A DNA stretch of 64,000 nucleotides from Nitrososphaeria archaeon (GCA_029775915.1 JARVKA010000002.1:1-64000), one strand, 5' to 3'. Numbered from the stretch's first letter, positions 46,026 through 57,288 are shown. Made by a program: numbers and translations. Notes: generated by a model not told the origin, from the sequence alone.

Positions 46026-46088
46026 ATTAGTGTTAGATTCAGTGTTGTGAGTAAGAAAAATTATTTTTTCTAAAAATCTAACACTAAT
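46026..46088 (+). repeat. Terminal-inverted-repeat element, copy 1
   Basis: A 63-bp unit begins ATTAGTGTTAGATT (46026-46039) and ends with its perfect complement AATCTAACACTAAT (46075-46088). The middle includes GTGAGTAAG, AAAAATTATTTTTTC and AAAAATC. The same unit, inverted, occurs at 57221-57288. There is no coding capacity and no clear target duplication. It could be a miniature transposon (MITE-like) or a structured RNA. It lies between the FtsZ-like gene and tRNA-Gln(CTG). Confidence 0.75.
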
Positions 46089-46165
46089 TTACGAAGTTTT
46101 TAAATTTATTATAAAGCTGGCATAGAACCTTAATGCAAAAATACAATGATATGGGATAAAAATGG

Positions 46166-46267
46166 TAGCCCGGGGCAGATTCGAACTGCCGTCACCGGCT
46201 AACCCCTATTAAAGATCCAGAGGCCGGTATCCTTAGCCCTTGGGGTTGGCCGCTAGACCACCGGGCT
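46166..46267 (-). tRNA. tRNA-Gln(CTG) with two introns
   Basis: The acceptor AGCCCGG pairs with CCGGGCT, and the T arm is GGCAG-TTCGAAT-CTGCC. The anticodon arm CCGGC-CTCTGGA-GCCGG forms after removing a 16-nt insert at 46201-46216 at the canonical 37/38 site. A D arm (GTCT with GGAT) forms after removing 13 nt at 46233-46245 between positions 21 and 22. The spliced length is 73 nt. CCA is encoded at 46163-46165. Confidence 0.9.
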
Positions 46268-46969
46268 AACCACAAATAAATTAAGTAAAGGTTCGATTAA
46301 GCATTTTCCTATAATTTGATTCATAAAGAGTTTTTAAAGTATGATGCGATTTTAAAGGTTCGTGAATCATCACCAGATTTAACAGCAACTGGTGTAAATA
46401 CATCTCTCTTTTAATTCCCTTTATTGGGATTTCCCTTATGAATCCGATACCTTTTCTTGCCTTTTTTGACTGGAGGGGCTCTTTTCTTAGCGTTTTGCCG
46501 ACCACTCTTCGATTATCTATTAATTGCAAAACCCTTTATAAAGATAATCGAGAAAATAATTAATTAATTAAGCTTTTCATTAAACTCTAAAAACTACTAT
46601 ATATACAAATTTTTTTCATTTCTTTAATGAATGGTTTTATTCATATACTACACATAAAGCCAACAGAAAGATAGCCAAGAGAAACATGAAGAATATATTC
46701 TGAAAGAGCTTAATGTAAAAATGCAAGGATATTACTCAAATTTACTGGTATAATAAAAATGTTCTTCGTATCATTATGCTTACAAACTTGCAAAATATAC
46801 TAAATAGATCTATATATTAATTAAAGACCATATTAAAAGAGTCTTAAACACATAAAAATTATGAAAGAATAAAATATCCCATAATAAAACTATAAACAAA
46901 AATTTTGCAAGATGGATATAAACAAATATGCTACAGTGAAAGTTTAAAAGAAGGTGATATTATTCTTCT
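46268..46969. other. Gene-poor stretch with an uncertain 82-codon frame
   Basis: A minus-strand frame at 46281-46529 encodes a basic peptide (KKARKGIGFIREIPIKG) matching nothing I know; a neighbouring frame over the same bases is also partly open, so it may be a decayed gene. The remaining 440 bases are AT-rich with stops in all frames. No RNA gene or repeat recognised. Confidence 0.4.
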
Positions 46970-47709
46970 TTAGTTATTAAGCTTCTTAGCCACTCTGAAT
47001 TTTGGTGAAATTCCATTAACGAGTTTTCCAGCTTCATAGAGAAGTTTTTCATAATTTAGCTCCGTGTATTCATGGATATGTTTCTCAATTTGGCTAAGTT
47101 ACTATGCTAACGGCCATCTGACTATTCATCAAGTTCGCTTCAGCGATTCTAAGCGGGTAGTCTGAATAATATTCAACTAACCCAAGCCTCTTAGCAAAAA
47201 CTATGTGGCGGCATATATTCAGCATAGCTTTTATCGCCTTATGCATGGCTCTTTCAAATGCGTAGATCCTTTCTCAATAGAAGCTTCTTATCAATATGTG
47301 GGTCTTCTTTCAACCATAAATTGCACAGATACTCATAATCAGTGTTGTAAACAAGATAATTCTTTATGACATCGATAATAAGTGCACTTTCCGTATCATC
47401 TTTATCTACAAGTTTTATGCCTTGAGTTAAAATTTTATATTTTTAAGGTAAACCAGCTTTTTCAATATCCACAATATCCACTTTATTCTCAGGAACCTTT
47501 AAAGCTCTCGCAATCTCACTTATTAAGATAACCATAATGCTAAAATCTTCTTTAGACCTCAATTTTAAGGCTAAGTTAACATCGTGAGCGCTAAAGCCCT
47601 CAGCCACGGAGCCAAATAAGTATGCAAGAACAACATCATATCCGTTGAGAAGTTGCCGCAAAGACTCTATACACTTAATCCTAGAAATCTTGAAGAAGGA
47701 ATGCATCAA
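46970..47709 (-). pseudogene. Decayed MntA-HepT (nucleotidyltransferase-HEPN) toxin-antitoxin pair
   Basis: From ATG 47709 the frame shows a minimal nucleotidyltransferase: YLFGSVAEGFSAHDVNLAL, in which the catalytic DxD is DxN. An in-frame stop at 47443-47445 is followed in the same frame by KYKILTQGIKLVDKDDTES and NYLVYNTDYEY, the rest of MntA. Then, near 47273, a HEPN protein begins (ERIYAFERAMHKAIKAMLNI, RHIVFAKRLGLVEYYSDYP), broken by stops, with its tail HEYTELNYEKLLYEAGKL in another frame. In intact systems MntA AMPylates and neutralises HepT ribonuclease. Both halves are dead here. Confidence 0.72.
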
Positions 47710-48054
47710 AAATTCCGAGAAGTTTCCACGGAACTACGCAAGAAGGTTAAGGTTCACGAGAAGGTGGAAGCTTAAGGCATTGGCTTCCGAACTCGATTGA
47801 TTGCGTCTAGGAGACTGGAGCTGTTACAACCTTTCGCAACAGTCATTATAGATTTCTATAACGCCGCCCATGGAGTAATTTAGAACGCCTATTGAAATTT
47901 CTTATGACATCCCTACTCATTATTCTGAGATATCTTTTCGGCCAATGTCGAGGTATTTAGACTATCCCCACTTCTTAACATCCCTTCTCGATCAATCTAG
48001 TTAGTTGCTTTACCATTGAGGTAGGAATAAGGTATATTTATACTTGTGGTATAG
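47710..48054. other. Gene-free stretch of unusual composition
   Basis: The segment is richer in G+C than its surroundings, with a short plus-strand frame from 47701 (24 codons). Stops interrupt all frames and I recognise no protein, repeat or RNA. The composition suggests foreign origin, like the adjoining dead toxin-antitoxin locus. Confidence 0.35.
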
Positions 48055-48147
48055 CGCCCTGGCCGGGATTTGAACCCGGGTCGGAGCGGTGACAGCGCCC
48101 CATACTCGACCGGATTGTACGAACCAAGTTCTCTATACTACCAGGGC
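48055..48147 (-). tRNA. tRNA-Asp(GTC) with a D-loop intron
   Basis: The acceptor GCCCTGG pairs with CCAGGGC, the T arm is CCGGG-TTCAAAT-CCCGG and the anticodon arm is GGGCG-CTGTCAC-CGCTC, giving GTC. The D arm (GTAT with GTAT, loop containing GGTC) forms after removing a 20-nt insert at 48113-48132 around position 15/16. The spliced length is 73 nt. CCA is not encoded. The canonical 37/38 site is uninterrupted. Confidence 0.88.
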
Positions 48148-48260
48148 ATCTAAATTTAAGATATACTTTGGATTTTTTAAATTTATCGAATAACTTAAAT
48201 TCCTTTTCTCATTAAGCTAAAAGTTTATTTAATAGTTGTGTAGATTGTGAATGGGGTTTA

Positions 48261-49130
48261 ATGGTTATAATGGAAAGATTATCAGTAAATGATTCAATAA
48301 AGATTATTGATAATTTGATTATTAATTATCCAGATTTACGCAATCTCCTAGAGTTACAAAAACAGATTTTAATAGCTCAAAGGAGAATTAGAGAGAGTCC
48401 AAATAAAGGAACCAATATAAATTGGGAAGAATCGCATTTTATCATTTCAAATTTGCAAGAAAGTATTCGCAAATCCAATAAACCTTTAATTAATTTTCTC
48501 AATCCATCTATATTCAATTTTGATGAATTACTAAATACTTTTAATCAAGTGATTGAAGTTTTATCTAAAATAATTGTGAAAAAAGATGATTTATTAAAAA
48601 ACTTATCGAATGAGTTAATTAAAGATATTGAAGCGCTTATAACTGCATATTTAAAGAATGATGAAGATTTTTTCATAAATTATAGTAAAAAGTTAAGCAT
48701 TAGCCCAACTTTAATCATTTTCATTATTAATATTTTGATTCAACCATGCTTTGAGGAAATAGCGAACAGAATCGATTCATCAATATTGGAGAATTGGTGG
48801 CAAGCACCTTGCCCAATTTGTGGGAGAAAGCCTATAGTAGCTAAGTTGAAGAATCGTAAGCGCTACCTTATATGCTCTTTATGTAATGTAGAATATCTCG
48901 CTGATCTCTTTCTTTGTGTTAATTGTGGTAATATAGATCCTGCAACCTTTAAGTTTCTCACTCCAGAAAATCATTCAGAATTTCGAGTAGATTTTTGTGA
49001 AAAATGTAAGCATTATATAAAGGTTATAGATGAGGAGAAGTTAAAAAAACCTATTCCAAAAGGGTTTGAGGATATTCTCACAATAGATCTTGATATTATG
49101 GCTGAAAAAGCTGGATTAATTAGAGATTAA
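48261..49130 (+). CDS. fdhE: FdhE-like formate dehydrogenase accessory protein
   Basis: The 289-residue protein has a helical N-terminus and C-terminal zinc ribbons starting at Cys184: CPICGRKPIVAK, ICSLCNVEYLADLFLCVNCG and FCEKCKHYIKVID. This series matches FdhE, an iron-binding maturation factor that helps export or activate formate dehydrogenase. The fdhABC genes lie on the opposite strand 0.7-6 kb away, which strengthens the call. Its last bases overlap the convergent neighbouring gene by 4. Confidence 0.86.
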   Translation: MVIMERLSVNDSIKIIDNLIINYPDLRNLLELQKQILIAQRRIRESPNKGTNINWEESHFIISNLQESIRKSNKPLINFLNPSIFNFDELLNTFNQVIEVLSKIIVKKDDLLKNLSNELIKDIEALITAYLKNDEDFFINYSKKLSISPTLIIFIINILIQPCFEEIANRIDSSILENWWQAPCPICGRKPIVAKLKNRKRYLICSLCNVEYLADLFLCVNCGNIDPATFKFLTPENHSEFRVDFCEKCKHYIKVIDEEKLKKPIPKGFEDILTIDLDIMAEKAGLIRD

Positions 49131-49663
49131 CCCCAACACGGTTCAATAATTCGAACAGGTTTACAATAAAAGTTTTGAATCTTCTCTTCTCCATCATTAA
49201 CCTTCACAATAGCCTTTTCATCCTTATATCCTGGTATAGATACAGATAACTCATAAGTATCTCCAACTAAATTTTTAAACTCATAATAGCCATTTTTATT
49301 AAGAGAAGCATAACGATTCGAGATGGGCATTATAAGAGTTACAGTACCGCCCGTTATTGGCTTATTTGTTTCAGCATCATAAACACTTCCGTGAATTTTT
49401 GCGTTTCCTACAGCCTCACTCAATTGGAAATTCGTTACAACCGTTTCACCCTCTTTTAAAGTTATAGTTTTACTATCACTTTTAAAGCCCTTTAAAGTCA
49501 CGCTAATAGTATAAGTTCCCGGCTTCACATCATTAAACTCATACGTGCCATCAAATAATGTAAATGTCTCTTTGCCATCACAAATCACTCTCACACCTCT
49601 TAATCTCATGCCTTTTGTATCATAAACATGCCCAATGATTCTACATAACGATTGTACACTCAT
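49127..49663 (-). CDS. Carboxypeptidase-regulatory-like (CarboxypepD_reg) repeat protein
   Basis: The 178-residue protein has two tandem beta-sandwich repeats: RIIGHVYDTKGMRLRGVRV with GTYEFNDVKPGTYTISVTLKG, and KIHGSVYDAETNKPITGG with GYYEFKNLVGDTYELSVSIPG. No signal peptide is evident at the N-terminus. Such domains bind carbohydrate or protein surfaces. It lies between FdhE and the formate dehydrogenase gamma subunit, but no role there is known. Confidence 0.8.
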   Translation of the reverse strand: MSVQSLCRIIGHVYDTKGMRLRGVRVICDGKETFTLFDGTYEFNDVKPGTYTISVTLKGFKSDSKTITLKEGETVVTNFQLSEAVGNAKIHGSVYDAETNKPITGGTVTLIMPISNRYASLNKNGYYEFKNLVGDTYELSVSIPGYKDEKAIVKVNDGEEKIQNFYCKPVRIIEPCWG

Positions 49664-49860
49664 ACCGCTTACTTTTTATGAGCGATGCATTTTTTAACTT
49701 TTACACCTTATATTGATTTCCTAAATTTACATAAGTAAAAAATCAATAGTTACTAACAGTTTTTCACTTAATGTACATTTGTAAGCATATTTAACAACAC
49801 CTAACTTTATCCTTCATTACCCATTGAATCTATCTGAAAACTCTTAATAATCAATTGATT

Positions 49861-50511
49861 TTATTGATTACTTCCCTTAACTTCTTTATACCATAATGAA
49901 TGATGCTCTCGAGCAAATTCAGCTGGAATCATACCATCGGTGAACATTCCCTCAAGCAATGGGCGATGCTCCTTGTAAAGAGTGCTCATGTAGAAGTGGA
50001 ACATGAGTACGAAGAGTATAAGGAAGAAGAAGACATCGTGCACTACTAATGCCCATTCATGAATCCATGATGCAAAGTAAGACGGAAACATAAGTATAAT
50101 GCCTGAAATGCCCATAAAGATCATAAACCATACAGCCATTAGCCAATATACCAAAATCTTCTCTGTAGGATTGTGAAAACCAATCTCTGGCTTTTCATTG
50201 CTTAACCCCATGTAATACTTAATCAATTTTATAGAGTCTTTAATATCTTTAATTGTTACTATAATCTTTGTTCGCTTTAAAGCGATTGTATGGTAAAGTA
50301 TGTGGAAGATGCCTACAGCTAAATATAAACCAGCTGCCATTCTATGAATAGTTCTAAACAAATCCATTGTAATAGGTGTTGTTACCATCCAACCGAACCA
50401 TTCTATCTTTAATAATGGTAAGCCTGTAATGATAAAGATTGGCATTAATACCATTATTATTAAATGCTCAACCCTTTCCGCTAACGCCCAACGAAGAATT
50501 TTTTCACTCAT
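49861..50511 (-). CDS. Formate dehydrogenase gamma subunit, cytochrome b
   Basis: The 216-residue protein has four membrane helices with histidines placed as haem ligands: ERVEHLIIMVLMPIF, RTIHRMAAGLYLAVGIFHILYH and WALVVHDVFFFLILFVLMFHFYM. It matches formate dehydrogenase-N gamma (cytochrome b556). It anchors the complex and passes electrons to quinone. It abuts the beta subunit stop (50512), so translation is coupled. Confidence 0.9.
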   Translation of the reverse strand: MSEKILRWALAERVEHLIIMVLMPIFIITGLPLLKIEWFGWMVTTPITMDLFRTIHRMAAGLYLAVGIFHILYHTIALKRTKIIVTIKDIKDSIKLIKYYMGLSNEKPEIGFHNPTEKILVYWLMAVWFMIFMGISGIILMFPSYFASWIHEWALVVHDVFFFLILFVLMFHFYMSTLYKEHRPLLEGMFTDGMIPAEFAREHHSLWYKEVKGSNQ

Positions 50512-51297
50512 TTATTTACTCACCTCCTTACTCTTAACATTAATTTTCTCTCTACGATTAGCTATCCATGACATAGCTACCATTGAACCTAATACAGCAA
50601 GCGTAACTACTCCACCAGCAATTTCTACAAAGTTCTTCATTTGCATCGATAATGGTTGAGTTTTAGCTATTTTGTGATATCCCAATTGCTCAGGCGGGGT
50701 GTCAGTGATTATAAATACAGATGTCCCTTCATTTTCTTCAACTCCATACAAGTAGCCCTTTATTTTATTCTTCTTTTCAATAGCTTTTGCCAACATTTCA
50801 TCACGCTCTCCAAACTCTAAAGCATCCGTAGGGCATGCTTGTACACAAGCGGGCTCTAACCCCTCTCTAATACGATCTGGGCACATTGTACATTTGTAAA
50901 CTTTATTGCTTACTGGATCATATCTTGGGATTTTGAATGGGCATGCAGCAACACAATATTTGCAACCTATACATTTATCCACATTTATTACTACTGGCCC
51001 TTCATTATACTTTGTTATAGCACCAACTGGACAAACATTTCTACAAGTTGGATTTAAACAATGCATACACCTTTCTTGTACGAATTTCCACTTAAATTCA
51101 TCACCTTCACCTATTCCAACAAACTTTACTAATAACCAAGTATTTGGAGTGAGATCAAGCGGATTCGTCCATTCACTACTCTTTGCTGCACTTAACTTAG
51201 TATTCTCAGCTTTAAGTTCCCACCATCTCTTGCAACTCACTTGGCATGCTCTACATGCTATACATCTTGTCGAATCAAATTTTATTGCTTTAGCCAT
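50512..51297 (-). CDS. Formate dehydrogenase beta subunit, 4x[4Fe-4S]
   Basis: I place the start at ATG 51297, after GAGGTGAT; the longer frame from 51363 overlaps fdhA. The 261-residue protein has four cysteine groups: CIACRACQVSC, CMHCLNPTCRNVCP, CIGCKYCVAACP and CTMCPDRIREGLEPACVQACP. A C-terminal membrane helix (EIAGGVVTLAVLGSMVAMSW) anchors it, as in FdhN beta. It relays electrons from the catalytic subunit to cytochrome b. Confidence 0.92.
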   Translation of the reverse strand: MAKAIKFDSTRCIACRACQVSCKRWWELKAENTKLSAAKSSEWTNPLDLTPNTWLLVKFVGIGEGDEFKWKFVQERCMHCLNPTCRNVCPVGAITKYNEGPVVINVDKCIGCKYCVAACPFKIPRYDPVSNKVYKCTMCPDRIREGLEPACVQACPTDALEFGERDEMLAKAIEKKNKIKGYLYGVEENEGTSVFIITDTPPEQLGYHKIAKTQPLSMQMKNFVEIAGGVVTLAVLGSMVAMSWIANRREKINVKSKEVSK

Positions 51298-51307
51298 TTT
51301 TATCACC

Positions 51308-54300
51308 TCATGATGCTTTCTCCACCTTACATAAACAAGCTTTATACTCTGGTATGTGAGCACTTACATCTACGGCATCTATAACCAAAACATTTGCACT
51401 TACTCCAGTGCTTAAACCTTTAAAGCCCCAATGCCAAGGCATCGCAACTTCATGAATAATTTTACCATTAATGGTTAAAGGTTGTAATCTCTCTGTCACT
51501 ATACACTTCATTTTCTCACCTTTAGGGTTCCTAGCGGTTTTCACAATCACATAATCACCACTTTTAACACCAATTTCTTTCGCAAGGGCTGGACTTATCT
51601 CTACAAACATCTCTGGATGGCATTCAATAAGCCAAGGTTGATTTCTCGTTAAACCACCAGCTTGCATATGCTCAGCTAATCTAAAGGTTGTTAATACATG
51701 AGGATACTCCTCACTTTTACCAATAGCTACCGGCTCATAATAGGTATAATAATCACCCCACATCGTTGGATACTCTTTCGCTAATTCACTATCAGGACTC
51801 TCTGCAGGTTCATTATGCAAAGGCAATCCATGATGAAGTGGGTTGGTTGGTGGCAATTTAGGATTATATAGCTGGCTAGACCATATAGCTGCCTTATCTA
51901 AACCTAACCAAACATTTTCATTCATAGCGAACCAAACGAAGAAAGTCTTAACCCCAGGGTTGCTTTCATTTATATTATAAAGAATTCTTTGATTATCCAT
52001 CCAACTCCAAGCCCAATTCTTGAAATAACCATATTTAGCATCTTGCTCATCTACGGGTCTAATATCACGCCTCTTTGGCATTATACCATCGATATCAGGT
52101 CTAGCCTCTGGATCATAAGAATTTCTATACAATACATTAGCAGCGCTTTGGAATAATGTAGTATTGCCAACCTTTATGCTCTTAGCTCCTATTTCTTTAT
52201 AAATAGATTCTGGGTCTCTTCCGAAGCGAGAAGGCCAAGCCAATTCAGGGTTAACTGGCAGATCAACACCACCTATAGTTCTCTTCACAACCACACCATT
52301 CTCTTCTCCAAACTTCTCCGATGGTAACTTTATTCCAGCTTTCTTTAAAACAAATCTTATTCTCTCATACAATTCGGTAAGATATTCTAACTCTGGCTTA
52401 CATTCACCTGGCGGATCTGCAGCTTTCCAACGCCATTGAATCCATCTTCCTGTATTGGTAATGCTACCGGATCTTTCAACTTGGAAGGTACCTGGTAATA
52501 CTATATCTGCATACCATGCAGTCTCTGTCTCAAAAAGCTCATTAACGACTAAGAAGAGATCTGGACTCGATAAGGCTTTTCTCACAAGGCCTGCATTGGG
52601 CATCGATACCGCTGGATTCTCACCATTGCATATCAAAACTTTAATCTCACCAGCCAATATCTTTCTAAAGAGTTTAACAATCGGATTACCAAATCCTACT
52701 GGTAAATCACATATAACAGGCTCATTATCCGGATCGATGCCGGGCCATGTGCCTATATAAATTCCCCAATGGTATTCAAGAGCGTTCCATGTGGGGAAAT
52801 GCCTATTGTAATATCTCTGCTCAATCTTGTTGTAAGATGGATCGTCATCATTTGCCTTTTTTGCATTCGGATCATAACATCCTCCACGCTTTACTGGATC
52901 ATAATTCTTCCACTTTTGATACCTTCTGATTTCAGTTTCATCTCTCGGTGGAGCTCTATATCCCATTATTACATGCATAAGCAGATTCATATCTGTAGAG
53001 CCTTGCACATTACTAATACCTCTTAAAGCATTAATGCCCCCTCCAGGTACGCCGATGTTTCCAAGGAGTAATTGTAGAATCGCTTGCGCTCTGATAGCTT
53101 GAGTAGCATTTGTGTGTTGCGTGGTACCCATAGCATAATAGATGTTACACGGTCTATTCTTTGGATCTGTAAAAGTATCTGCAATGAGCTTAAACTTATC
53201 TACAGGTATTCCACTAATTCTAGAAACTTCTTCTGGCGTATATTTAGCAACAAGAGCCTTCAATCTATTAAATATGGAATTGGGATGATCTAACCCGACA
53301 AGGTTACCTTGAAGATCGTAAGGTGCATTCGTTCTCTTCTCAATAAATTCCCTATCTATGCGCTCTGGTTTTTCATAAAGGAGATAGCGTATTAAGCCTA
53401 AGTATATGGCTGCTTCTGAGCCAGATCTATACCTTGCGTAAATATGAGCTTTAGAACTCGTTCTATTATACCTTGGGTCCAAATTTATTACTATAGCATT
53501 ATTCTTTTCAATAGCTTCTGTCACCCATTTGAATTCCATTGTATGTGATTCGGCTGGATTGCTCATAATAAGGAAGCATTTTGAATTCTTTGCATCCACT
53601 ATATGGTTCGTCATAGCACCAAAACCGAATGTATTAGCAAGAGCTACAACCGTTGAAGCATGGCACTTTCTTGCTTGATGTTCTACATTATTAGAGCCCA
53701 ATAAAGATATTAACTTTCTTGCAAGGTAGCACTCTTCATTATTCCAATAAGATGATCCAAGCCATGCGATGGGCGAATCTCTTCCAACATAGTAATAATC
53801 ATCTTTTCCAGTTTTAGGATTTTTTCTCTTATATGGTACTGTGGCTAAAGCATCCTTTATTTTCTCAGCGATTATAGAATAAGCCTCATCCCATGAAATC
53901 CTTACCCATTTTGGATCCTCATTCTCACCCTTCTTTGGATTGGTTCTTTTCATTGGGTAAAGAATACGACGAGGGCTATTCACAGCTTGAATTAAAGCTG
54001 ATGGCTTACTACATAAAGCTCCTTGATTTATCGGGTGGTAAGGATCGCCTTCTATCTCTATTATTTTTCCTCTCGTTGATAAATCTCTCTCTAAAAATTT
54101 AGCATAAATATCTCCTTCTTTCATATCAACAGAACTTCCTTCTAAGGTTGTTACTAATAATCCACAACCACCAGCACAATAAGGACAAATACTTGGAGTT
54201 TTTTTACCTATTTTATAATTCTGCATCCTTCCTCTTTGGGGCAAAATTGTTATTGAAGAACCTTGAACCTCAGGTATAGCTCCTAAAGCGAGTGTAGTTA

Positions 54301-54394
54301 TTGTTACTGCCCCACCGATTTTCAAAAAATCTCTTCTATTAATCTTATTTACTGTTCCATTTGATATTTCAAATAATTTAGATTCATTTGACAA
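51308..54394 (-). CDS. fdhA: Formate dehydrogenase alpha subunit, molybdopterin, Tat-exported
   Basis: The 1028-residue protein starts at TTG 54394 with a Tat signal (RRDFLKIGGAVTITTLALG, arginines 20-21). The [4Fe-4S] ligands are Cys70, Cys73, Cys77 and Cys128. The active-site residue is Cys244 in HQARKCHASTVVAL, so this is a cysteine rather than selenocysteine enzyme. Later motifs include SNPAESHTMEFKW, LLLGNIGVPGGGINALRGISNVQGS and a C-terminal molydopterin domain (EYPHVLTTFRLAEHM). Length and HQARKCH motif favour a formate dehydrogenase-N type enzyme facing outside. Bis-MGD may hold Mo or W. Confidence 0.93.
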   Translation of the reverse strand: MSNESKLFEISNGTVNKINRRDFLKIGGAVTITTLALGAIPEVQGSSITILPQRGRMQNYKIGKKTPSICPYCAGGCGLLVTTLEGSSVDMKEGDIYAKFLERDLSTRGKIIEIEGDPYHPINQGALCSKPSALIQAVNSPRRILYPMKRTNPKKGENEDPKWVRISWDEAYSIIAEKIKDALATVPYKRKNPKTGKDDYYYVGRDSPIAWLGSSYWNNEECYLARKLISLLGSNNVEHQARKCHASTVVALANTFGFGAMTNHIVDAKNSKCFLIMSNPAESHTMEFKWVTEAIEKNNAIVINLDPRYNRTSSKAHIYARYRSGSEAAIYLGLIRYLLYEKPERIDREFIEKRTNAPYDLQGNLVGLDHPNSIFNRLKALVAKYTPEEVSRISGIPVDKFKLIADTFTDPKNRPCNIYYAMGTTQHTNATQAIRAQAILQLLLGNIGVPGGGINALRGISNVQGSTDMNLLMHVIMGYRAPPRDETEIRRYQKWKNYDPVKRGGCYDPNAKKANDDDPSYNKIEQRYYNRHFPTWNALEYHWGIYIGTWPGIDPDNEPVICDLPVGFGNPIVKLFRKILAGEIKVLICNGENPAVSMPNAGLVRKALSSPDLFLVVNELFETETAWYADIVLPGTFQVERSGSITNTGRWIQWRWKAADPPGECKPELEYLTELYERIRFVLKKAGIKLPSEKFGEENGVVVKRTIGGVDLPVNPELAWPSRFGRDPESIYKEIGAKSIKVGNTTLFQSAANVLYRNSYDPEARPDIDGIMPKRRDIRPVDEQDAKYGYFKNWAWSWMDNQRILYNINESNPGVKTFFVWFAMNENVWLGLDKAAIWSSQLYNPKLPPTNPLHHGLPLHNEPAESPDSELAKEYPTMWGDYYTYYEPVAIGKSEEYPHVLTTFRLAEHMQAGGLTRNQPWLIECHPEMFVEISPALAKEIGVKSGDYVIVKTARNPKGEKMKCIVTERLQPLTINGKIIHEVAMPWHWGFKGLSTGVSANVLVIDAVDVSAHIPEYKACLCKVEKAS

Positions 54395-54515
54395 TCTTAA
54401 TCAGCCGTAAAAAAATTAAGATGAGCTACTTATATTTCTTTACTCATTTATTTATTTACTCTATTTACATCTACAATAATACTTCTCTATTTACTTAGAG
54501 ATTTCTCTTTGTATT

Positions 54516-54668
54516 TTACACATTATTGTTAATTATTCGCTCTTTTGGTGTATGCTCTTCACATAAAACTAGAGGAATCTTAATGGGAGAGTAACCGAGT
54601 CTTTTGCCACATACTATACAAATTAACTCTGTGAATACGAGCGTATCTAACTTTATATTTGTGGACAA
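54516..54668 (-). CDS. Small cysteine-rich protein upstream of fdhA
   Basis: A 50-residue protein starts at TTG 54668 with GAGGTGA five bases before it. It contains ICIVCGKRLGYSPIKIP and then VLCEEHTPKE, a CxxC...C..H set suited to bind zinc or a cluster. It is the gene just upstream of fdhA on the same strand (122 bases apart). No close family is known to me. It may be a maturation or regulatory factor of the formate dehydrogenase operon. Its ribosome site and cysteine pattern support a real gene. Confidence 0.62.
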   Translation of the reverse strand: MSTNIKLDTLVFTELICIVCGKRLGYSPIKIPLVLCEEHTPKERIINNNV

Positions 54669-54965
54669 ATGATTCACCTCACTTTAATAAGTTTTAAGCT
54701 CGCTTTAGTAAGCTATTAATATTGCGCCTCTATCCGTTAAATACATAACTGTAATTTTCTAGATATTCGTGTAAAGATCACTCAATTCTATAATCTCCAA
54801 ATGCAAAATTTTCATAAACGTTACTCTTAAGCTATGAATCATCACATATTTACCCAACTTTTAGAAGCTAAATCTAAATTAATTATCTAAACTTGAGATA
54901 GTATTAACTTTATTAGTTATTAAGGAAAAATACTATCCCCGCTCAACGATGTATAATACTCTAAA

Positions 54966-56030
54966 CTATTTCTCAAATTGCAAATTGAGATTCTCTTTTT
55001 GATTCAATAGGCAAAGTAATCCTAAAGCACCCGTTATCATATGATCGTTAAGAGGGTTGCCAAATTGGAATTGTAAATTCGTTCTCTTAATAATCTCTCG
55101 CTTCGGTCCGGTTACAATAATAGCATCTATAGGCCCTCGGCACTTTTGGTTAATATAAGCGCCATGACCACCCTCATTTAAAATTTGCTCATGTGTTAAT
55201 CTTCCATTTATTAATAATTGGATAAAACGCTCCAACTTATCTGGTGTTAAAGTTGCAGTGTGTGTCTCAAAATAGCCAACAATCTCTCCTTTTATCAACA
55301 TAGCTGCAAATGTGTGACCATTACCTATATCCAATGTAATTATCTTCTCCTTATTTATTGCATGATGGTCGAGAGAAGCACCAACACAAGCTGCAATAAC
55401 TGTATCGGTAACGTATATCTTACCTGAGAAAGATTCTCTTAATTGTTGAGAGACAGATCTCATTCTAAGAAGTGTATTTGGAATATCTTTATCCTCAAAT
55501 AATAAACTTACAGGTTTTGGATCCTTTTCAATAAATTCTTTTAATAAATTATGGCGATATTCAATCGGGGATATACCTTTTGGAGCTTTTCCATGATCTT
55601 GAACTGCAAACACAATATAATCCAACTTAGTACAAATTTCATTCTTCACAGCAAACTCTAATAAAAGTTTTAAATCGATCTCTCTTAACTCTATCGTTAT
55701 GAAATCTTTCTCATTGGAAATATGATTAACAATTTCTATTCCCATAGACTTTACGTAATTTAAATCATAATTGAATGTGAGTGCTGCTGGTAATGTTGCT
55801 TTAACTCTCTTTCCCTTACTTATTAACTCTTTTACAGATCTTGTTATCGGACCGCCACCAATTATACCGCCCGTAAGTAAAAGATTTTCATGCTTAATCT
55901 TCGATATTTTACGAGCAAAGACTTGAGTTGCTGATGGTAAAATCATTTTTGGTAAAAATTCATATGATGGGCTGTAAAATAATACATCTTGGGTACCTAA
56001 TCCTACATCAATACAGCATATAGCGACCAA
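54966..56030 (-). CDS. DUF1786 family protein (ASKHA-like fold)
   Basis: The 354-residue protein starts IDVGLGTQDVLFY, a phosphate-1-like motif, and has a second ITLDIGNGHTFAAMLIKGEI and then NEGGHGAYI and IIVTGPKRE, consistent with an acetate/sugar kinase-HSP70-actin fold. This is DUF1786, found in archaea and some anaerobic bacteria, often near radical SAM or glycyl-radical genes. Activity unknown. It precedes nothing downstream within its strand for 0.3 kb and sits 8 bases after the PadR gene, so PadR may control it. Confidence 0.8.
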   Translation of the reverse strand: MVAICCIDVGLGTQDVLFYSPSYEFLPKMILPSATQVFARKISKIKHENLLLTGGIIGGGPITRSVKELISKGKRVKATLPAALTFNYDLNYVKSMGIEIVNHISNEKDFITIELREIDLKLLLEFAVKNEICTKLDYIVFAVQDHGKAPKGISPIEYRHNLLKEFIEKDPKPVSLLFEDKDIPNTLLRMRSVSQQLRESFSGKIYVTDTVIAACVGASLDHHAINKEKIITLDIGNGHTFAAMLIKGEIVGYFETHTATLTPDKLERFIQLLINGRLTHEQILNEGGHGAYINQKCRGPIDAIIVTGPKREIIKRTNLQFQFGNPLNDHMITGALGLLCLLNQKENLNLQFEK

Positions 56031-56037
56031 TTTATTA

Positions 56038-56505
56038 TTAACTACTTTCTTCCTCTTTATTAATTCTATTCAACTCTGTTATTAAGAAATTTTTATACTT
56101 CTCTTTTTGTTCTTTACTCAATTTAAGAATATCTTCACGTAACATAGTGATTAAACCTATAATCCTATCGATTATATCTTGAGTTACAAAGCCTCCATAT
56201 GTAAATAAGCGTATAATCGCTCCAAATATTTTATCAAACTCTTCACGTACCTCAATATATTCTTCAAGCTTTCTTAATCCCTTCTCAGTAATTTTATAAC
56301 CTTTTTCAACCTCTTCAATCAACCCCTCAGATAGAAGTCTGCCCAATAATGGATAAACAAGGCCAGGAGATGGTTTCCAAGCACCTTTTGTTCTCCTTTC
56401 AGTCTCCTCAATAATCTCCTTACCCGTCATAGATTTTTCTCTCAATAATGACAGGATGTAGAATCGTGAAAAGCCCCTTGGCACCACACTTCTACCTTTG
56501 CTCAT
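56038..56505 (-). CDS. PadR-family transcriptional regulator
   Basis: From ATG 56505 the 155-residue protein has the PadR winged helix: FSRFYILSLLREKSMTGKEIIEETERRT, WKPSPGLVYPLLGRLLSEGLIEEVEKGYKITEKG, then a C-terminal helical dimerisation arm. The longer frame from 56622 would start upstream of its own promoter. A 28-bp perfect palindrome overlaps the start codon, and a TATA box lies just beyond it, so autorepression is likely. DUF1786 lies directly downstream in the same direction. Confidence 0.9.
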   Translation of the reverse strand: MSKGRSVVPRGFSRFYILSLLREKSMTGKEIIEETERRTKGAWKPSPGLVYPLLGRLLSEGLIEEVEKGYKITEKGLRKLEEYIEVREEFDKIFGAIIRLFTYGGFVTQDIIDRIIGLITMLREDILKLSKEQKEKYKNFLITELNRINKEEESS

Positions 56506-56531
56506 ATCACTAATGATATCATTAGTGATAT
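56504..56531. promoter_or_regulatory. Perfect 28-bp palindrome at the PadR start: probable operator
   Basis: The left arm ATATCACTAATGAT (56504-56517) is the exact reverse complement of the right arm ATCATTAGTGATAT (56518-56531). On the minus strand the TATA-like CTTATATATC directly precedes it, so the palindrome covers the transcription start and the start codon of a leaderless transcript. PadR dimers bind such dyads, so this is probably its autoregulatory operator. Confidence 0.8.
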
Positions 56532-56667
56532 ATAAGTTTTGTGTTAACAATAAAAGACTCAATTTATCAATTCTTTTCCTACACTTATTTATAATTTTAA
56601 GCTTGATAATCAATATCCTCAAAATTTAAGTTTTATTAGTAAGTAAAGCTATTAAATCTTGAGAGTT

Positions 56668-57114
56668 ATGAAGGTTAAGGATGTTATGAGTAAAGATGTG
56701 GTTAAGATTGAAGCGAATAAAAATGTGCTAGATGCTGCAAGGCTTATGAGTGAAAAAGGTGTTGGATGTTTAATCGTAGTTTCAAGTGGTAAAGCGATAG
56801 GGATTATTACTGAAAGAGATTTAGTATCAAGGGTTTTAGCAGAGCCTTTCGACCCCTCAAAAGTTTTAGTTAGCGATATTATGAGTACACCCTTATTTAC
56901 AATATCTTCTGATCAAACGTTAAATGAAGCTGCTGAGCTTATGTTAAAATTTAAAGTGAGAAGATTACCTGTAGTTGATAAAGGTGTTTTAGTTGGGATA
57001 ATAACTGCAACCGATTTGGCTAATGCTTTAGCCAATAAAGCGTTAAATGAAAGTTTAATACTTAAAGCGATAGCTAGATATAGTAAGCCACCTGAATTCG
57101 GTCCTTATAGATGA
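56668..57114 (+). CDS. Two-CBS-domain protein
   Basis: From ATG 56668 (TTG 56659 is an alternative) the 148-residue protein has two CBS domains: KVKDVMSKDVVKIEANKNVLDAARLM with GIITERDLVSRVL, and DIMSTPLFTISSDQTLNEAAELM with GIITATDLANAL. CBS pairs bind adenine nucleotides and act as energy or redox sensors. No catalytic partner is fused or adjacent, so the target is unknown. Confidence 0.9.
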   Translation: MKVKDVMSKDVVKIEANKNVLDAARLMSEKGVGCLIVVSSGKAIGIITERDLVSRVLAEPFDPSKVLVSDIMSTPLFTISSDQTLNEAAELMLKFKVRRLPVVDKGVLVGIITATDLANALANKALNESLILKAIARYSKPPEFGPYR

Positions 57115-57220
57115 TGAACGCTAAAAGGTAATAATTGTTACAATATTTGGTATTTTTATTATTCTTTAGCATAAAATTAATTGCAAGATGAGAAAGAGGC
57201 TTGAAGTGGTGAAGCTTTTA

Positions 57221-57288
57221 TTTAGTGTCAGATTTTTAAAAGAAAAATAATTTTTTCCTTGCTCACTTACACTAAATCTAACACTAAT
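57221..57288 (-). repeat. Terminal-inverted-repeat element, copy 2 (inverted)
   Basis: Read on the minus strand the 68-bp unit begins ATTAGTGTTAGATT (57288-57275) and ends AATCTGACACTAAA. Inside it has AGTGTAAGTGAG, AAGG and AAAAAATTATTTTTC, in the same order as the copy at 46026-46088. Two of 14 positions differ between the ends. It lies in the 309-base gap between the CBS and XPB genes, which otherwise holds no recognised feature. Confidence 0.72.

What the first reader, a model, noticed from the sequence alone, without database searches (positions are those of the whole stretch)
46026..57288. Two related short elements with 14-bp terminal inverted repeats
Units at 46026-46088 and, inverted, 57221-57288 share termini ATTAGTGTTAGATT/AATCTAACACTAAT and an internal order of GTGAG, AAG and AAATTATTTTT blocks. 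They lie only in gaps. They may be MITEs mobilised by a transposase outside the window, or copies of a structured RNA gene.
Basis: seen in the sequence. Interest (0 to 1): 0.62.

Follow-up and report, generated by a model that had tools for sequence, protein, structure and literature searches.

The report
Dispersed palindromes resembling terminase-gene site
The two short units are real and belong to a family of about 28 scattered palindromic DNA sites in this ammonia-oxidiser-related archaeon; the same site also lies between the two DNA-packaging genes of a tailed-virus-like gene cluster, so they may be copies of a viral DNA-binding (possibly packaging) site spread through the host chromosome.

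Summary
Observation confirmed: both units exist and are far beyond chance. They belong to a family of about 28 intergenic copies in this 1.47-Mb Nitrososphaeria genome and about 23 in a congener, but only four genomes across the order. The conserved design is two inverted half-sites (TTRGTGTY... and ...RACAYYAA), each about one helical turn from a central A/T palindrome. In other copies the arms carry the half-site repeated as a 12-mer.

The 14-bp repeats are not element ends: related copies share flanks beyond them. No target duplications or matching transposase were found, and arm pairing shows no covariation, so an RNA gene is unlikely. Eleven of 13 comparable positions are empty in the congener, so the sites are gained or lost quickly.

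The one position shared by distant genomes lies between a terS-like gene and terL of a tailed-virus structural cluster resembling the domesticated, gene-transfer-agent-like loci proposed for Thaumarchaeota. Another family carries short fragments of that junction, centred on the palindrome.

Best reading: non-autonomous dispersed copies of a terS-terL junction DNA site. That TerS binds it, and how it spreads, are inferred. The most novel unexcluded reading is packaging-start sites seeded through the host genome.

The parts
46026..46088 (+). Copy 1 of the dispersed palindromic element
   Evidence: fold z -5.1
46026..46039 (+). Outer left arm ATTAGTGTTAGATT
46056..46069 (.). Central A/T palindrome AAAAATTATTTTTT (A-tract)
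   Evidence: A-tract is among the most conserved columns in two genomes
46075..46088 (-). Outer right arm AATCTAACACTAAT, the most conserved half-site of the family
57221..57288 (-). Copy 2 of the dispersed palindromic element (inverted relative to copy 1)
57221..57234 (+). Arm TTTAGTGTCAGATT (2 mismatches to the 14-mer)
57243..57256 (.). Central A/T palindrome AAAAATAATTTTTT
57275..57288 (-). Arm AATCTAACACTAAT, exact copy of the 14-mer

Best explanation
The units are two members of a non-autonomous, dispersed family of extragenic palindromic DNA sites. SHOWN: each site is a pair of inverted half-sites (TTRGTGTY / RACAYYAA, in some copies tandem 12-mers TTAGTGTCRGAT) about one helical turn either side of an A/T palindrome; the same site lies between a terS-position gene and terL of a tailed-virus structural cluster; at E<1e-4 the family appears, with one weak exception, only in genomes that also hold the close terL, intact or in fragments; most chromosomal positions differ between two congeners; in one other family the copies are short pieces (75-650 bp) of the terS-terL junction centred on the site. 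INFERRED: the site is a protein-bound, bendable DNA signal of the virus-like cluster, most likely read by its TerS (packaging-start type), and hairpin-centred fragments have been copied into intergenic DNA by an unidentified process that leaves no target duplication.
For: Copy number: 28 places in G000, 23 in G001. Distribution: 3 of 201 order genomes and 4 of 300 class genomes at E<1e-4, plus a weak G035 hit. Close terL (54-79% identity) only in G000, G001, G025 (fragments) and G035. Site between the 139-aa gene and terL in G000 and G001, in G035 with different arms but the same CAGC-A6T6-GCAG centre, and in five G025 fragments, two of them (C87 5508 and C73) with reduced or altered flanks or arms. 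Within G000 the terS-terL copy scores best with a model (R2) built only from G001 and G025 copies. Terminase, portal, capsid, tail tube, tape measure identified. Conservation is very uneven (chi2 252 on 66 df in G001; 344 on 73 df in G000): GTG, A-tract and RACAC invariant, spacers free. Half-sites vary without covariation. G000 copy L028 carries a 69-bp piece 80% identical to the end of the terS-like gene.
Against: Most G000/G001 copies carry no recognisable terS/terL flank; 7-8 G000 copies share a different, non-coding 3' module. Clusters with a more distant terL (G003, G004, G012, G025-C92) and related viral contigs lack the site at terL, so it is not a general terminase feature. The TerS identity of the 139-aa protein rests on position and a marginal profile hit of its G035 relative (E=0.007). 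No binding data. The spreading mechanism is unknown. The G025 fragments were largely found through the site itself, so their centring is partly ascertainment.
Confidence: 0.45

Rival explanations
1. Ordinary MITE/REP-like family: a non-autonomous element mobilised by a transposase now lost or not searched for; one copy landed between terS and terL in an ancestral virus.
For: Inverted repeats, AT-rich, intergenic, lineage-specific positions (11 of 13 comparable sites empty in G001); a 276-bp pair 97% identical at two sites indicates recent copying; truncated MITEs can resemble REPs (PMC10969869).
Against: Copies extend past the repeats by different lengths; no target duplications; no Y1 or DDE_3 transposase and no DDE_Tnp_1 gene with these ends; junction pieces in G025 carry terS/terL coding sequence; G035 has a homologously placed hairpin with different arms.
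Confidence: 0.3
2. Remnants of many decayed proviruses: each site marks a dead integration whose other genes have eroded.
For: G025 and G035 hold several degraded terS/terL pieces; L028 in G000 has a terS piece.
Against: Other viral genes are absent next to nearly all sites; the two window copies lie in short intergenic gaps (about 310-370 bp) with syntenic host genes on both sides.
Confidence: 0.1
3. Host chromosome-organising or regulatory site (binding site of a nucleoid, segregation or transcription protein) that the virus-like cluster also carries.
For: Invariant core positions and constant helical spacing in two species; copies in G000 never closer than 8 kb (P=0.0065; gap CV P=0.07).
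Against: Rapid positional turnover between congeners; absent from nearly all other genomes of the order; no consistent gene orientation.
Confidence: 0.1
4. Copies of a structured RNA gene.
For: First window copy folds well (z -5.1).
Against: No Rfam match; no covariation above shuffles; other copies fold weakly.
Confidence: 0.03

Closest known systems
Bacterial/archaeal MITEs (PMC10969869)
   Same: Short, AT-rich, inverted-repeat, multicopy, intergenic, non-autonomous
   Different: No target duplications, no partner transposase found, repeats are not the ends of the copied unit
Repetitive extragenic palindromes with RAYT transposases (PMC3733652)
   Same: Dispersed extragenic palindromes of similar size
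   Different: No GTAG/CGTC tag seen at the ends; no Y1 (RAYT/IS200) transposase in the four carrier genomes; A-tract core with one-turn spacing
Phage pac/cos sites and host pseudo-pac sites (P22 in Salmonella, PMC11226127)
   Same: DNA site next to or between terminase genes; look-alike sites in the host chromosome
   Different: Here the chromosomal look-alikes form a large conserved family rather than chance matches; recognition by TerS untested
Thaumarchaeal tailed proviruses Nvie-Pro1, NCAV2-Pro1, CalSub-Pro, proposed as domesticated or GTA-like (PMC6563490)
   Same: Complete morphogenesis genes including a protease-capsid fusion, no integrase or replication genes found
   Different: No dispersed palindromic site family turned up when that paper was searched for these terms; here a palindrome sits at terS-terL

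Membership tests
MITE | Inverted repeats at both ends of the mobilised unit | tested here: not met
   Related copies share 30-145 bp beyond the repeats; G025 pieces extend into terS/terL
MITE | Target-site duplication (in younger copies) | tested here: not met
   No offset pair exceeds permutation in 51 copies; old copies could have lost it
MITE | Related autonomous element or transposase with the same ends | tested here: not met
   PF01797 and PF13358 absent; PF01609 loci lack the motif; other transposase families not searched
MITE | Multicopy and positionally polymorphic | tested here: met
   28 and 23 copies; 11 of 13 sites unshared
REP/RAYT | Y1 (IS200-type) REP-associated transposase in the genome | tested here: not met
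REP/RAYT | GTAG or CGTC tag at one end of the palindrome | tested here: inconclusive
   Not seen at the ends on inspection of the alignments; no systematic scan
Structured RNA family | Compensatory base changes | tested here: not met
   4 pairs with double changes vs 3.8 in shuffles
Structured RNA family | Match to a known family | tested here: not met
pac/cos packaging site | Located at the terminase genes | tested here: met
   G000, G001, G035 and G025 fragments
pac/cos packaging site | Bound by TerS and cut during packaging | not testable with these tools
   needs binding or packaged-DNA sequencing
Gene transfer agent-like cluster | Morphogenesis genes without integrase or replication genes | tested here: met
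   G000:C7 about 42-60 kb; genes beyond about 60 kb only partly classified
Gene transfer agent-like cluster | Vertical conservation at one locus | tested here: inconclusive
   terL locus orthologous in G001 but no capsid gene found in that fragmented assembly
Gene transfer agent-like cluster | Packages host DNA | not testable with these tools
   needs particle DNA sequencing

The most novel reading that the evidence does not exclude
The dispersed palindromes are packaging-initiation sites of a domesticated virus-like (gene-transfer-agent-like) particle, seeded about every 50 kb through the host chromosome so that host DNA is packaged from defined points.
Probability: 0.13. Interest if true: 0.92.

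Novelty: new variant of a known kind. Interest (0 to 1): 0.52.

Why it matters
If the dispersed sites are read by the terminase of the virus-like cluster, they would show how an archaeal gene-transfer-agent-like machine, so far only proposed from gene content in Thaumarchaeota, could choose host DNA, and would make that proposal directly testable. Even if they are only a selfish repeat, they would be a repeat family derived from, or captured by, a viral terminase junction, with no ordinary transposase signature.

Tried and rejected
MITE with the 14-bp repeats as ends: flanks shared beyond them, no target duplications, no partner transposase. IS200/IS605-derived palindromes: no Y1 transposase. 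RNA gene: no Rfam hit, no covariation. Terminator: copies occur in tandem, divergent and convergent gaps. General feature of terL junctions: absent from distant-terL clusters and 33 related viral contigs. Clean empty sites: orthologous gaps in G001 lack the site, but intergenic DNA is too diverged to define the insertion edges. First naming attempt with the 559-aa protein found nothing; SHMT placed the host among Thaumarchaeota/Nitrososphaeria. First terL search of viral contigs found nothing; the alignment search found relatives at 40-56% identity.

Full report
OBSERVATION. Both units are present where described. The 14-mer is exact at three of the four ends; the 57221 end has two mismatches. 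Within the window alone the 14-mer is weak evidence (5 near-matches against 1.9 expected), but the complete 63-bp unit finds a large family in the same genome. A profile of 23 copies (R1, alignment A2) finds 28 distinct places at E<1e-3 in the 1.47-Mb genome G000 and 23 in the only held congener G001.

HOST. The window carries archaeal genes and intron-bearing tRNA-like genes. A serine hydroxymethyltransferase from the same genome is closest to Thaumarchaeota/Nitrososphaeria MAGs (best 71-73% identity).

ANATOMY. Across the family the order is: half-site TTRGTGTY, a spacer of about 11 bp, a central A/T palindrome of about 14-16 bp (AAAAATTATTTTTT), about 9-14 bp, then half-site RACAYYAA. In G001 and G025 the arms are often tandem 12-mers TTAGTGTCRGAT / ATCYGACACTAA. 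Conservation is strongly uneven: GTG, the A-tract and RACAC are invariant or nearly so in both genomes while spacers vary (chi2 252 on 66 df and 344 on 73 df; caveat: copies were found partly through these cores). The arms pair, but in alignment A4 the changes do not covary beyond shuffles (4 pairs with double changes against 3.8), and RNAalifold found no double change among G000 copies. I read this as two protein half-sites rather than an RNA helix.

NOT THE ENDS OF A TRANSPOSON. Two copies (L003, L005) share 276 bp at 97% identity with the palindrome inside, and seven to eight G000 copies share a further non-coding module of 75-100 bp on one side. So the 14-bp repeats are internal to what was copied. 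No offset pair gives target duplications above permutation in 51 copies. No Y1 (IS200/IS605/RAYT) or DDE_3 transposase was found in the four carrier genomes, and the few DDE_Tnp_1 loci lack the motif.

TURNOVER. For 13 G000 sites the flanking gene order could be found in G001. Two are occupied in both: the terS-terL site C7:45351, and C4:218806, where the G001 copy is weak. Eleven lack the site in G001, including both window copies. A reciprocal check adds a G001 site that is empty in G000. Intergenic DNA is too diverged to read exact insertion edges. Gaps between copies in G000 are never below 8 kb (P=0.0065 by simulation; the coefficient-of-variation test gives only P=0.07).

LINK TO A VIRUS-LIKE CLUSTER. 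The site C7:45351 lies between a 139-aa gene and a 531-aa gene that is a terminase large subunit (PHROG E=6e-43, Pfam Terminase_6N E=1e-16). The 139-aa gene is in the usual terS position; its own profile hits are insignificant, and its G035 relative has only a marginal small-terminase hit (E=0.007). The cluster (about C7:42-60 kb) holds portal, protease-capsid fusion, tail tube, tape measure, neck and baseplate genes, and no integrase or replication gene was recognised. This matches the thaumarchaeal head-tail loci that Krupovic and colleagues suggested may be domesticated, gene-transfer-agent-like elements (PMC6563490). In G001 the same genes flank the site (terL 79% identical). In G035 the same junction carries a hairpin with different arms (TAGTTTAAGTT/AACTTAAACTA) but the same A6T6 centre with CAGC/GCAG flanks. 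In G025 (another family of the order) five copies carry pieces of terS and/or terL around the site, in total about 180 to 650 bp; one further copy is the bare 75-bp site; one has changed arms (CAGTACCGGATT) altered in both arms alike; a further weak hit at C30 was not inspected. G000 copy L028 carries a 69-bp piece of the terS-like gene end. A model built only from G001 and G025 copies ranks the terS-terL copy first among all G000 copies.

DISTRIBUTION. At E<1e-4 the family is found in G000, G001 and G025 of 201 order genomes, and in those plus one weak single hit (G293) in 300 class genomes; G035 has weaker hits. Apart from G293 these are the genomes with the close terL, intact or in fragments, in a 121-genome search. 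Distant-terL clusters in G003, G004, G012 and G025-C92, and viral contigs with terL 40-56% identical, lack the site. So the site belongs to one lineage of the virus-like clusters, not to terminase junctions in general.

INTERPRETATION. The evidence supports a dispersed, non-autonomous DNA site with a probable source or relative at the terS-terL junction of a tailed-virus-derived cluster. That the site is read by TerS, and that the chromosomal copies act as packaging starts, is inference. Known gene transfer agents are described as packaging host DNA non-specifically (PMC7947584 abstract), and chance pseudo-pac sites are known for P22 (PMC11226127 abstract), so a conserved dispersed set would be new. 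The main rival is a MITE/REP-like repeat whose mobiliser is missing and one copy of which entered the virus lineage; the differing-arm hairpin at the same junction in G035 and the junction pieces in G025 argue for a viral source, the unrelated flanks of most G000/G001 copies argue for the rival.

LIMITS. Metagenome-assembled, fragmented genomes; only one congener; not all transposase families were searched; no expression, binding or particle data.

Noticed in passing
L179 and L251 (G000:C7 about 42.3-59.9 kb): Tailed-virus morphogenesis cluster without recognised integrase or replication genes; terL lies next to an ABC-ATPase/acetyltransferase gene. That adjacency recurs in G003, G004, G012 and G025, other families of the order, which suggests long vertical retention.
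   Followed up: partly
window 46163-46268 (- strand): Sequence that looks like an intron-bearing tRNA gene, 94% identical in the congener but not reported by ARAGORN or Rfam at default settings.
   Followed up: no
L003 2739-3035 (G000:C4 near the contig end): CRISPR-DR2-like repeats with about 66-bp spacing, below Rfam's gathering score.
   Followed up: no
L003 and L005: 276-bp repeat, 97% identical; in L005 it sits exactly between TTGACAATC and GATTGTCAA, as if inserted into the loop of a hairpin.
   Followed up: partly
G000 copies L003, L005, L007, L010, L014, L016, L019: A subfamily shares a non-coding module of 75-100 bp after the palindrome, with a possible second hairpin AAATGTT...AACATTT.
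   Followed up: partly
L251 10252-10584 (G000:C7 63251-63583): Helix-turn-helix protein like the N-terminal part of an IS630-type transposase, without a DDE_3 domain in the genome.
   Followed up: partly
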